Shown here one piece after another: positions 30,936 to 37,314 of a stretch of 37,314 nt of DNA (its first letter is position 1; each line of letters opens with the position of its first letter). Under the pieces are notes generated by a model. The model searched no databases. It was not told where the DNA came from and saw nothing but the letters and a program-made list of their open reading frames with translations. The DNA lies in the IMG/VR virus record IMGVR_UViG_3300021131_000022, positions 1 to 37,314 of that record. One strand, written 5' to 3'. Source of the DNA: a virus. The translations under genes and the position numbers were made by a program.

Positions 30936-30936
<1 letters not shown>
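30340..30936 (+). CDS. Zn-ribbon structural protein (198 aa)
   Basis: ATG overlaps the preceding TGA (ATGA). Residues 15-60 hold two Cys pairs, [10 protein letters not shown] and [10 protein letters not shown] (CxxC...CxxC), a zinc-ribbon likely binding one Zn. The C-terminal part is flexible ([20 protein letters not shown]) with a repeat-like [20 protein letters not shown]. In related phages this type of protein lies beside tail accessory proteins and is structural. Exact role unknown. Confidence 0.65.
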
Positions 30937-34514
<3,578 letters not shown>

Positions 34515-34523
34515 GGATTAACA

Positions 34524-34853
34524 ATGGCAAACTCATATTCTTGGGTAATTTCTCAACTAGAGTGCTATCCAGAACACGACAACCATACAGAAGTCGTCTT
34601 CCAAGTTCACTGGCGCAGACAAGCGACAGACGGAACGCACACCGCTGACATATATGGATCACAATCCGTAACGCTAGATCCAGCCGCTCCATTCACAGCC
34701 TATGCTGATCTGACAGAAGCACAGGTTATCGGCTGGCTGGAAGATGCGTTTGGCTCTGAGACATTAGCTGCACAAGTTGCTTCACTTGATAAGCAGATTG
34801 AGGATCAGATTAACCCGCCCGTTCTGCGTATGCCTAATCCTTGGTCCGTTTAA
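34524..34853 (+). CDS. Tail-associated small protein (109 aa)
   Basis: MANSYSWVISQLECYPEHDN, EVVFQVHWRRQATDGTHTAD and EAQVIGWLEDAFGSETLAAQ follow the small DUF7936-like proteins found after tail-fibre genes; I recall this pattern but cannot name a function. AAGGATTAACA precedes the ATG. Its last 20 bases overlap the end of the antisense endonuclease gene. Confidence 0.62.
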   Translation: MANSYSWVISQLECYPEHDNHTEVVFQVHWRRQATDGTHTADIYGSQSVTLDPAAPFTAYADLTEAQVIGWLEDAFGSETLAAQVASLDKQIEDQINPPVLRMPNPWSV

Positions 34854-35613
34854 CATACCGCCAAGTGTAGCCGTAGGCGGAGGACTTTTCGCCTCGGCAT
34901 ACTTTTGCAATGGATGAATGGTCGCCCTTGTATTTGCCTTGGGATGCAACCCATTCTGCCGCAAGTGTCCCTGTTCCAAAAATCATACCAGTTTCAATAC
35001 ACTTTACAGCTTTAGCTTGAACATGCGCCGCCCGCTTTTCGGGTGTGTTGAAGCGTTCTCGCGCTCTTTTGCTGGCTAGGGCGCGGGCTTTTGGGTTCTT
35101 AAATTGTGCGATGGTTGCGGCGCTTAGTTTTTCGCGGTTTGTGGGATTGGCAAAATACTCTTTTAATGTTTGGCTAATTTTTGCTCTAATTTCTGGACAA
35201 GCAGCTTGTTGTTTAACTCTTTTTACGTGGGCGGAATAAAAAACTGGATCAGCGTAGCGTTCTTTTGCTTTTTGTTTCAAAAGTTGCCTTGCTTTTGGAT
35301 CAGCAAGTCTTCGCCGTTGCTTGGCGCGAGTTTTTTCTGACACGATAGCTCCATGCGCCCCGTCGCCTCCGTCAGTTAAATTGCAAAGTCCTAAATGCTT
35401 GTATTTTTTGATAAGTTTAATTTCGAGGGCAAAGGCTTCGTCTTGTGTTAAATTGTTTTTGACAATTTCTGCCGTGTAACCATATTTATTTACGATGTTG
35501 TGCCAATAGGGTGTTCGGGCCCATTTAGATTTGTGACGGTAACGGCATCCTTTGCCGATGTAAAAAATGCGCCCGTCGGTTGCTTTTTTGTGGATGTAGA
35601 CAAAGAATTGCAT
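34834..35613 (-). CDS. GIY-YIG homing endonuclease (259 aa)
   Basis: FVYIHKKATDGRIFYIGKGC is the GIY-YIG core (YIH...YIG); KSKWARTPYWHNIV, ALEIKLIKKYKHLGLCNLTD (catalytic Glu in ALEIKLI) and the NLTDGGDG end complete the nuclease. A Lys/Arg-rich linker with repeats (SEKTRAKQRRRLADPKARQL; FKNPKARALASKRARERF) resembles NUMOD3-type DNA-binding units. The end KAVKCIETGMIFGTGTLAAE through CRGEKSSAYGYTWRYVK is a NUMOD/IENR1-type helical domain. Freestanding, in antisense orientation among tail genes, AT-rich relative to neighbours: a typical selfish insertion. The start lacks a ribosome site. Confidence 0.9.
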   Translation of the reverse strand: MQFFVYIHKKATDGRIFYIGKGCRYRHKSKWARTPYWHNIVNKYGYTAEIVKNNLTQDEAFALEIKLIKKYKHLGLCNLTDGGDGAHGAIVSEKTRAKQRRRLADPKARQLLKQKAKERYADPVFYSAHVKRVKQQAACPEIRAKISQTLKEYFANPTNREKLSAATIAQFKNPKARALASKRARERFNTPEKRAAHVQAKAVKCIETGMIFGTGTLAAEWVASQGKYKGDHSSIAKVCRGEKSSAYGYTWRYVKRTKD

Positions 35614-35934: not shown

Positions 35935-37314
35935 ATGCCTTACAGCTCTGAGAGCGGAAAATCTTACATCCGCAATATAGTGGGTCGTATTAAACACGGC
36001 CGCATGCTTGACATTGGCTGCGGCAGCGGCACATACGCCAAAATGTTCCCAGAAGCAGACTGGACCGGAATTGAGGTGTGGGAACCATATATTGAAGAAT
36101 TTAAACTAAATGATCTGTATCAACAGCTGATACTTGCAGACGCAAGGGCCGTTAATCTTACGCGCTTTGGGCATTTCGACGTCGTCATGCTTGGCGACGT
36201 ATTGGAGCATATGGATAAAGATGATGCTGTCGCGTTACTCGACAAGGCCAGGTCTGTCGCAGACACCGTCATCGTCAGCATACCCATCGGCCACTATCCT
36301 CAAGATGCATACAACGGCAATCCTCACGAAAAGCACATAACAGACAATTGGTCAGACCAAGAGTTTATAGAAACCTTTGGTGAGCCAACAGTCGGATACA
36401 TCGAAAATGAGATTGGCGTTTATTGCTGGTCAAACCAGAAAGTCAGACCAAAGATCTGCATTTACGCCATCAGCAAGAATGAAGAACAGTTTGTCGCACG
36501 CTGGGCGGCGTCGGGAAGAGATGCAGACCTGTTAATGATTGCCGATACTGGCAGCACTGACAAAACAGTAGAAGAATGTAAGAAAAACGGAGTAACCGTT
36601 CATGAGATTTGCATTACGCCTTGGAGATTCGATCACGCTCGTAATGCTTCTATCGCCCTTATACCTCGCGATATTGATATATGCGTTAGCCTCGACGTGG
36701 ATGAGGTTATGGAACCCGGATGGCGAGATGAAATAGAGCGCGTCTGGACACCTGAAACCACCCGCCTCCGTTACATGTTTGACTGGGGCTGCGGCGTTAA
36801 GTTTGGGTATGAAAAGATCCATCACCGCCACGGCTACTACTGGCACCACCCTTGCCACGAATACCCACGCTTTGATGCGCGTATCAACGAGGTCTATGCA
36901 TACACCGACAAGCTGCTTGTCAGCCATCATCCAGACCCCACAAAGAGCCGCGGGCAGTATCTGGACCTGTTGGCGCTGTCGGTCAAAGAAGATCCTGTGT
37001 GCCCGCGTAACGCCTTCTACTATGCCCGCGAGTTATCATTTTATTCACGCTGGGATGAATCAATTGTAGAGCTCCAACGATATCTGGCACTCCCCGGCGC
37101 TACGTGGATCAATGAGCGGTCATACGCAATGCGCACACTGGCAAAATGCTATGAAGGGAAAGGCGACCCCGCTGAGGCTGAGGCTTGGTGGCTAAGGTCG
37201 GCGGCTGAGAGCCCTAATACCCGCGAGCCTTGGTGCGGGCTGTCAAATCTCTACTATATGCAGGCAAGATGGCAGGAATGTTATGGCGCTGCAATGCGTG
37301 CGCTATCTATAAAA
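35935..37314 (+). CDS. SAM methyltransferase - GT2-like glycosyltransferase - TPR fusion (3' partial, 460 aa seen)
   Basis: ATG at 35935 after AAAGGAGGGG; the frame stays open to the window end. Residues 1-170: class I methyltransferase with MLDIGCGSGTYAKMFPEADW (motif I), TGIEVWEP, and DVVMLGDVLEHMDKDDAVAL (motif IV region). Residues 175-300: GT-A fold glycosyltransferase-like, ICIYAISKNEEQFVARWAAS, MIADTGSTDKTVEECKK, CVSLDVDEVMEPGW, where DVDE supplies the metal-binding Asp. Residues 360-460: TPR helices (MRTLAKCYEGKGDPAEAEAW; LSNLYYMQARWQECYGAAM). Likely modifies a glycan or decorates a phage or host surface component; the substrate is unknown. Multi-domain GT genes next to tail fibres often serve receptor or fibre modification. 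Confidence 0.85.
   Translation, partial: MPYSSESGKSYIRNIVGRIKHGRMLDIGCGSGTYAKMFPEADWTGIEVWEPYIEEFKLNDLYQQLILADARAVNLTRFGHFDVVMLGDVLEHMDKDDAVALLDKARSVADTVIVSIPIGHYPQDAYNGNPHEKHITDNWSDQEFIETFGEPTVGYIENEIGVYCWSNQKVRPKICIYAISKNEEQFVARWAASGRDADLLMIADTGSTDKTVEECKKNGVTVHEICITPWRFDHARNASIALIPRDIDICVSLDVDEVMEPGWRDEIERVWTPETTRLRYMFDWGCGVKFGYEKIHHRHGYYWHHPCHEYPRFDARINEVYAYTDKLLVSHHPDPTKSRGQYLDLLALSVKEDPVCPRNAFYYARELSFYSRWDESIVELQRYLALPGATWINERSYAMRTLAKCYEGKGDPAEAEAWWLRSAAESPNTREPWCGLSNLYYMQARWQECYGAAMRALSIK

What the first reader, a model, noticed from the sequence alone, without database searches (positions are those of the whole stretch)
35935..37314. Methyltransferase, glycosyltransferase and TPR in one phage gene
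Three domain types are fused in order, running past the window edge. A metal-binding DVDE in the glycosyltransferase part and a complete SAM motif argue that both enzymes are active. Next to fibre genes, such a fusion could modify the fibre or the host's surface sugars, changing receptor use or blocking superinfection.
Basis: partly seen in the sequence, partly recalled or inferred. Interest (0 to 1): 0.5.

Follow-up and report, generated by a model that had tools for sequence, protein, structure and literature searches.

The report
Phage enzyme predicted to sugar-coat collagen fibres
A phage gene joins a methyl-adding and a sugar-adding enzyme in one protein, and its relatives often sit near collagen-like fibre genes rich in threonine, which suggests that these phages decorate their own collagen-like fibres with (possibly methylated) sugars, much as some bacteria do on their spores.

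Summary
The fusion is real. Window 35935-37314 holds a class I methyltransferase (MT), a GT2 glycosyltransferase and the start of a TPR array, cut by the contig end (about 63 aa missing). Catalytic motifs are invariant in 24 fused homologues. The host-surface reading gets little support. Better: O-glycosylation of threonines in the phage's own collagen-like (Gly-X-Thr)n fibre (30936-34514). Among collagen contigs sampled blind to the Y residue, 7 of 14 Thr-rich ones carry a near-full-length GT and 0 of 31 Thr-poor ones do; generic GT2 enzymes show no such bias. Gly-Pro-Thr versus Gly-Pro-Gln contigs gave 21/50 versus 0/40 (the samples overlap and are not tree-corrected). Of 46 well-flanked bacterial relatives, 18 lie within 300 bp of a Thr-rich collagen gene. 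Architecture and setting match C. difficile SgtA, a GT+TPR enzyme shown to glycosylate Thr in collagen-repeat peptides; seven bacterial relatives begin with its nine primer-encoded residues. Foldseek's best matches are the protein glycosyltransferases SunS/ThuS. The MT (perhaps O-methylating the sugar) and a GT32 domain come and go modularly. Exceptions without collagen exist; activity is untested. A new variant of a known kind.

The parts
35935..36429 (+). Class I SAM-dependent methyltransferase domain (aa 1-165; motif I LDIGCGSG at aa 25-32, GDVLEHM at aa 87-93)
   Evidence: Pfam Methyltransf_11/25 over cut-off; invariant motif residues in 24 fused homologues; Foldseek 3cc8, E 4.5e-7
36448..36969 (+). 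GT2 (GT-A) glycosyltransferase domain (aa 172-345; DTGSxD, DxDE at aa 254-257)
   Evidence: phrog_13126 E 1.9e-91; phmmer of relative L002 to GmaR and ThuS chains; Foldseek SunS/ThuS
36970..37314 (+). Start of the TPR helical array (aa 346-460), cut by the contig end; about 63 aa lie beyond it in L002
   Evidence: TPR_2; helices from residue 340 onward in the L002 model; intact fused homologues mostly 521-540 aa
30936..34514 (+). Collagen-like fibre gene, proposed substrate: 51 Gly-X-Y triplets counted in runs of four or more, Thr at Y in 35, Pro at X in 25
   Evidence: Pfam Collagen E 2.8e-8; triplet count
34524..34853 (+). Small gene with DUF7936 between fibre and fusion gene; role unknown
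   Evidence: Pfam PF25590 E 6.8e-28
34834..35613 (-). Probable homing endonuclease on the other strand, between the fibre gene and the fusion gene
   Evidence: phrog_314 homing endonuclease E 1.3e-18; weak GIY-YIG Pfam match, E 0.016; in L004 the collagen gene ends 57 bases before the fusion gene

Best explanation
The gene encodes a virion-modification enzyme. The GT2 domain transfers a sugar from a nucleotide-sugar onto threonine hydroxyls in the Y position of the Gly-X-Thr repeats of the phage's own collagen-like fibre (30936-34514), made in the same cell. The TPR array holds the repetitive, still unfolded chain. The fused MT then most likely O-methylates the sugar; in other members a GT32 domain fused at the C-terminus would extend the glycan. 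Shown here: the fusion, conserved motifs and selection, the predicted folds, the statistical linkage to Thr-rich collagen genes, and modular gain or loss of MT and GT32. Inferred: substrate, sugar, order of reactions, what the TPR holds, and the purpose (stabilising a triple helix without hydroxyproline, protease resistance, or tuning adsorption).
For: (1) Collagen contigs >=15 kb sampled with a Gly-Pro-any pattern (45 with a verified collagen ORF, of the 80 rows listed out of 120): near-full-length GT (E<1e-90) in 7 of 14 with >=40% Thr at Y and 0 of 31 with less; Fisher p=7.6e-5; counting any match at E<=0.001, 9 of 14 and 3 of 31. Generic GT2 (PF00535) outside the family: 2/14 and 9/31, p=0.46. 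(2) Gly-Pro-Thr contigs 21/50, Gly-Pro-Gln contigs 0/40 with a near-full-length GT, p=4e-7 (at E<=0.001: 27/50 and 1/40); the 21 GTs fall into 19 clusters at 70% identity, 12 at 60%, 5 at 50%. (3) Contigs picked by the window's terminase (23 of >=15 kb): all 7 with the GT have a collagen match (one below Pfam's cut-off), 4 of 16 without it do, p=0.001. (4) In the 20 of these 21 Gly-Pro-Thr contigs fetched around the GT, a collagen ORF lies in the stretch in 18, on the same strand in 16, nearest gap about 2 kb at the median; their having collagen is by selection, only the nearness is informative. (5) Bacterial relatives: 20 of 46 well-flanked loci have a Thr-rich collagen ORF within 3 kb, 18 within 300 bp or overlapping. 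(6) SgtA of C. difficile (358 aa, GT-A + TPR, gene immediately upstream of bclA3) adds beta-O-GlcNAc to Thr of collagen-repeat peptides in vitro (PMC7157674, passages); seven bacterial relatives begin MITISLCMI, which is what the published sgtA primer encodes (my translation). (7) Foldseek's six best hits are SunS/ThuS chains.
Against: No activity or glycan has been measured. 8 of 27 GT-selected contigs of >=15 kb show no collagen match anywhere; four of these have under 1.2 kb before the GT match, but G091, G092, G102 and G113 keep 3.7-5.6 kb, and L006, L007 and L009 carry the fusion with no collagen-like gene in the stretch held. 29 of 50 Gly-Pro-Thr contigs lack a near-full-length GT, so this collagen does not require this enzyme. 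Samples 1 and 2 overlap (8 of the 14 Thr-rich contigs and 5 of the 7 positives of sample 1 are also in sample 2) and contigs are not phylogenetically independent, so the p-values are too small. In the terminase set the GT-negative collagens are also Thr-rich, 0.66-0.81, so that set tests collagen presence, not Thr. The positional test is home-made and modest (p about 0.004). Of the seven bacterial relatives that begin like SgtA, three (L427, L430, L433) have a Thr-rich collagen ORF in the stretch held and four do not. Identity between the phage family and the clostridial relatives is mostly 23-31%. The MT's acceptor is a guess: its structural neighbours include a protein N-terminal methyltransferase as well as small-molecule methyltransferases.
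Confidence: 0.7

Rival explanations
1. The enzyme modifies the host's surface polysaccharide or LPS during infection, altering receptors and blocking superinfection (first reader's second branch; also the role proposed for glycosyltransferases in the host-recognition cluster of pelagimyophages).
For: phrog_13126 is named beta-1,4-glycosyltransferase and filed as moron/host takeover; one PaBG record names its copy UDP-glucose LOS-beta-1,4 glucosyltransferase; that role is argued for other phages (PMC7029224, passages); WrtF fucosyltransferase is among the lower structural matches.
Against: Best structural matches are protein glycosyltransferases; the GT tracks Thr, not Gln, at Y of a fibre, which a surface-polysaccharide role does not predict; many bacterial relatives flank collagen genes.
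Confidence: 0.12
2. The enzyme glycosylates another virion protein (capsid, tail, or a Thr/Ser-rich non-collagen fibre), and the collagen link reflects a shared fibre module.
For: L006, L007 and L009 carry the fusion without a collagen-like gene in view; L009 has Thr/Ser-containing repetitive ORFs upstream. Mycobacteriophage Che8 is reported to carry glycans on major capsid proteins (statement in PMC11256854, passages; primary paper not read).
Against: Phage contigs with Gln-type collagen lack a near-full-length GT, 0/40, though these too are presumably fibre modules.
Confidence: 0.14
3. The enzyme modifies phage DNA bases (sugar or methyl hypermodification).
For: Phage GT plus MT could in principle serve DNA; DNA glycosylation is mentioned as a possible role for glycosyltransferases of other freshwater phages (PMC10202952, passages).
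Against: No DNA glucosyltransferase appeared among the listed Pfam, PHROGs, NCBIfam or Foldseek matches; neighbouring genes are structural.
Confidence: 0.03
4. Assembly or frameshift artefact joining two neighbouring genes.
For: L038 has MT and GT as separate genes.
Against: MT-GT fusion in 40 of 109 phage loci and 2 of 79 loci of the bacterial genome scan; purifying selection across the junction.
Confidence: 0.01

Closest known systems
SgtA of Clostridioides difficile (BclA3 collagen O-GlcNAc transferase; PMC7157674, passages)
   Same: GT-A + TPR of 358 aa (phage GT-only members mostly 345-374 aa); gene beside a Gly-Pro-Thr collagen gene; seven bacterial relatives found here share its nine primer-encoded residues
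   Different: Phage-encoded; in the window fused to an N-terminal methyltransferase, in some relatives also to GT32; sugar unknown; full SgtA sequence not compared
SunS/ThuS glycocin glycosyltransferases
   Same: Best structural match (Foldseek E 3e-16, 371 columns); weak NCBIfam match to TIGR04195 (E 1.6e-4)
   Different: Fails the TIGR04195 cut-off (20.6 of 350 bits); they act on a small bacteriocin peptide (recalled); no methyltransferase; no collagen
GmaR of Listeria (flagellin glycosyltransferase and anti-repressor; role recalled)
   Same: GT2 + TPR protein; phmmer 22ao over the GT start, E 1.3e-5; Foldseek 7x9r over 184 columns, the size of the other TPR matches
   Different: Substrate flagellin (recalled); no fusion to a methyltransferase
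Mimivirus L230 (collagen lysyl hydroxylase + glucosyltransferase; review PMC9614988, passages)
   Same: A viral two-enzyme fusion acting on the virus's own collagen-like protein
   Different: Partner domain is a hydroxylase; modifies hydroxylysine, not Thr; virus of amoebae
PHROG 13126 proteins of large phages (PaBG, Lu11, HRDY3, Erwinia and Dickeya phages)
   Same: Same GT2-TPR family by sequence
   Different: About 25-35% identity, and no record of the phage collection covers 80% of the fusion; no collagen ORF seen in the 12.9 kb around PaBG's copy

Membership tests
GT2 (GT-A) glycosyltransferase | GT-A core with nucleotide-sugar motifs and a DxD-type metal site | tested here: met
   PF00535 and PF13704 matched by 23 and 13 of 24 fused members at E<=0.01, although the window itself reaches only E 0.036 to PF13704; DTGSxD and DxDE invariant; Foldseek SunS
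Class I SAM methyltransferase | GxGxG-type motif I and acidic residue after strand 2 | tested here: met
   Pfam over cut-off; D26/G28/G30/G32 and E47 invariant; alternating helix-strand model of high confidence
SgtA-like collagen O-glycosyltransferases | GT-A followed by TPR in a protein of about 360 aa | tested here: met
   GT-only members mostly 345-374 aa; TPR helices in the model
SgtA-like collagen O-glycosyltransferases | Gene linked to a Gly-X-Thr collagen gene | tested here: met
   In the window and in 19 of 27 GT-selected contigs of >=15 kb; further; exceptions
SgtA-like collagen O-glycosyltransferases | Direct sequence homology to SgtA itself | tested here: inconclusive
   Only the nine residues encoded by the published primer were compared, with bacterial members; full SgtA not fetched
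SgtA-like collagen O-glycosyltransferases | Transfers sugar to Thr of collagen repeats | not testable with these tools
   Needs an enzyme assay or mass spectrometry
SunS family (TIGR04195) | Score above the curated cut-off of 350 bits | tested here: not met
   20.6 bits for L002
PHROG 13126 | Profile match over most of its 394 positions | tested here: met
   Positions 1-292 matched, the rest cut by the contig end, E 1.9e-91

The most novel reading that the evidence does not exclude
Collagen-like tail fibres of many environmental phages are glycoproteins: a phage-encoded SgtA-type enzyme, often fused to a methyltransferase and sometimes to a second glycosyltransferase as a one-chain glycan assembly line, O-glycosylates the Y-position threonines. 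The abundance of Thr at Y would then be an adaptation to glycosylation, and phages and spore-forming bacteria would share one collagen-glycosylation family.
Probability: 0.55. Interest if true: 0.75.

Novelty: new variant of a known kind. Interest (0 to 1): 0.6.

Why it matters
How phage collagen-like fibres stay folded without hydroxyproline is, to my knowledge, open. A dedicated, linked glycosyltransferase gives a testable answer and would re-label a family now filed as a host-takeover 'beta-1,4-glycosyltransferase'. It would also offer a reason why Thr dominates the Y position in one class of phage collagens, and would supply compact enzymes for glycosylating recombinant collagen.

Tried and rejected
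Rejected: frameshift or assembly fusion (conserved fusion and selection); DNA-modification role (no supporting match listed). The host-surface role is kept as a rival but not favoured. Terminase-matched contigs were meant to test Thr dependence too, but the four GT-negative collagens are Thr-rich as well (0.66-0.81); their contigs end within about 3 kb of the collagen gene, so a GT could lie beyond. Three literature searches for phage collagen glycosylation (20 of 31 papers listed; 9; 0) listed no paper that, by title, abstract start or the passages I read, links a phage glycosyltransferase to a collagen-like fibre; the library holds open-licence papers only, so this is weak. Searches for BclA glycans and for glycosylated phage particles gave context, not a test of the MT step. 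The idea that the MT's structural neighbour 3cc8 (bce_1332) belongs to an exosporium glycan cluster was not tested and is not used.

Full report
What is there. The window is the whole of one virus record (37314 bases). A frame starting with ATG at 35935 runs off its end (460 aa). Pfam finds a methyltransferase at aa 25-108 (Methyltransf_11, E 5.5e-8) and weak GT2 and TPR matches; PHROGs places aa 172-459 in phrog_13126, named beta-1,4-glycosyltransferase, at E 1.9e-91. A scan of IMG/VR found 184 confirmed relatives, of which the best 80 were kept. Intact fused relatives are mostly 521-540 aa (L002 523), so the contig end removes about 63 aa; GT-only relatives are mostly 345-374 aa; others of about 620-790 aa carry a further C-terminal domain, which is Gly_transf_sug (GT32-type, PF04488, over its cut-off) in the two I scanned. 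Over the 109 phage loci examined, near-identical ones included, the architectures by my models were GT2 66, MT-GT2 33, MT-GT2-GT32 7 and GT2-GT32 3; among the 79 loci of the bacterial genome scan 77 were GT2 and 2 MT-GT2.

It looks like a functional fusion. The catalytic-motif positions of both enzymes are invariant in the 24 fused sequences aligned. Nucleotide comparison of the window with six relatives shows non-synonymous change far below synonymous change (often saturated) in MT, junction, GT and TPR; the exception is the MT of L002, which is nearly identical and says nothing. AlphaFold2 on the alignment gives mean pLDDT 89.2 and pTM 0.76 for L002: an alpha/beta MT, a GT-A-like domain and a helical array. 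Foldseek's best solved structures are SunS and ThuS (ranks 1-6, E 3e-16 to 7e-14), then TPR proteins including the TPR domain of O-GlcNAc transferase; GmaR (rank 16) aligns over 184 columns, as the TPR matches do; WrtF fucosyltransferase is at rank 20; the MT part matches 3cc8 and other methyltransferases, among them the protein N-terminal methyltransferase NRMT2. phmmer on PDB sequences also gives GmaR (22ao, E 1.3e-5) and 7msk (named ThuS; E 0.0012) for the GT part.

The neighbour that matters. The fibre gene 30936-34514 has collagen-like repeats: 51 triplets counted in runs of four or more, with Thr at Y in 35. In the relative L004 such a gene (74 triplets, 52 with Thr at Y) ends 57 bases before the fusion gene; in the window a DUF7936 gene and a probable homing endonuclease lie between. 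I tested the link four ways. (a) GT-selected contigs of at least 15 kb: 19 of 27 hold a collagen match at E<=0.001; of the 8 that do not, four have under 1.2 kb before the GT match and four (G091, G092, G102, G113) keep 3.7-5.6 kb. (b) Contigs selected by the window's terminase, 23 of at least 15 kb: the 7 with GT all hold collagen (one, G138, below Pfam's cut-off), 4 of 16 without GT do (p=0.001). (c) Contigs selected for Gly-Pro-Thr repeats: 21 of 50 have a near-full-length GT match at E<1e-90 (27 of 50 at E<=0.001, the rest partial or weak); contigs selected for Gly-Pro-Gln: 0 of 40, with 1 weak match. (d) Contigs selected for Gly-Pro-any repeats, 45 usable of the 80 listed: 7 of 14 with at least 40% Thr at Y and 0 of 31 with less (at E<=0.001: 9 and 3); GT2 enzymes outside the family 2 of 14 and 9 of 31. 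Samples c and d overlap: 8 of the 14 Thr-rich contigs of d, and 5 of its 7 positives, are also in c. Contigs are not independent by descent, although 21 GTs of set c form 19 clusters at 70% identity, 12 at 60% and 5 at 50%.

Nearness. For 20 of the 21 positives of set c I fetched the stretch around the GT: 18 have a collagen ORF in it, the nearest on the same strand in 16 and about 2 kb away at the median; a home-made positional test gives p about 0.004.

Bacteria. One scan of GTDB genomes gave 79 loci. The closest (up to 67% identity) sit in MAG contigs and in one isolate, Quisquiliibacterium transsilvanicum (L410), where the GT follows a collagen-like tail gene and precedes endolysin and internal virion protein genes: most likely a prophage of a Burkholderiaceae host. 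Distant relatives (mostly 23-31%), many in Clostridia and Paenibacillus, often flank a Thr-rich collagen ORF: of all 46 well-flanked loci, 20 within 3 kb and 18 within 300 bp or overlapping; of the 33 loci cut short, 13 and 10. All 18 genomes that I chose from these loci for a whole-genome search have collagen matches, against 3 of 14 control genomes; several have many collagen genes. Seven of the 58 relatives whose first residues I printed begin MITISLCMI; three of these seven (L427, L430, L433) have a Thr-rich collagen ORF in the stretch held, four do not. C. difficile SgtA, whose published primer encodes the same nine residues (my translation), is a 358-aa GT-A + TPR protein encoded immediately upstream of bclA3 that adds beta-O-GlcNAc to Thr of collagen-repeat peptides, metal-dependently, and also works on Ser versions (PMC7157674, passages). 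This is the strongest mechanistic anchor; I did not compare the full SgtA sequence.

How it most likely works. GT2 adds the first sugar to Thr at Y of the fibre's collagen chain while the TPR array holds it; MT caps the sugar with a methyl group; GT32, where present, extends it. Only the parts and their linkage are shown; these steps are inferred. The tree of 84 GTs needs 14 changes of MT status (at least 10 forced by starred branches) and 5 of GT32 status (quick method, long branches flagged), so these parts come and go often. The window itself is a mosaic: its MT is 98-100% identical in DNA to L002's while the rest falls to 58-88%, and its TPR part is 90-98% identical to that of L040, a phage copy without MT, whose GT start is only 52-78% identical; the nearest GT is that of L032 (92% in protein). 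That fits optional tailoring domains added to a core enzyme.

Against. Several fused members have no collagen-like gene in view (L006, L007, L009), most Gly-Pro-Thr contigs in set c (29 of 50) lack a near-full-length GT, nothing has been assayed, and the MT's acceptor is a guess. Viral collagen glycosylation is known in mimivirus L230 (review PMC9614988, passages) and phage virion glycosylation in mycobacteriophage Che8 (as stated in PMC11256854, passages; primary paper not read), so neither idea is new by itself. My searches listed no paper joining a phage GT to a phage collagen-like fibre (listings and passages only).

Noticed in passing
window 35935-37314 versus L002 and L040: The gene is a mosaic with switches near domain borders: MT 98-100% identical in DNA to L002, TPR part 90-98% identical to L040, the GT core close to neither of these.
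   Followed up: partly
L038:723-2852: MT and GT are separate genes with an ORF between them that looks like an HNH-type homing endonuclease (by eye, not searched); the window has a probable homing endonuclease just upstream of the fusion gene.
   Followed up: partly
L082:10436-13080 (Actinomycetia phage DSL-LC01): A tryptophan-halogenase-like gene overlaps the GT gene by 4 bases, downstream of two collagen genes; a halogenase in a fibre module is unexplained.
   Followed up: no
L062:6004-7828 and L061:309-2133: A truncated 60-aa copy of the GT start precedes the intact GT with about 560 bases between them.
   Followed up: no
L410 (Quisquiliibacterium transsilvanicum): Probable prophage with collagen-like tail gene, GT, endolysin and internal virion protein genes, giving a named host lineage for this family.
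   Followed up: partly
L009:464-2806: Two upstream ORFs made of similar 'RNKYTYACDT..GIFALG' repeats, beside an MT-GT fusion with no collagen gene in view.
   Followed up: no
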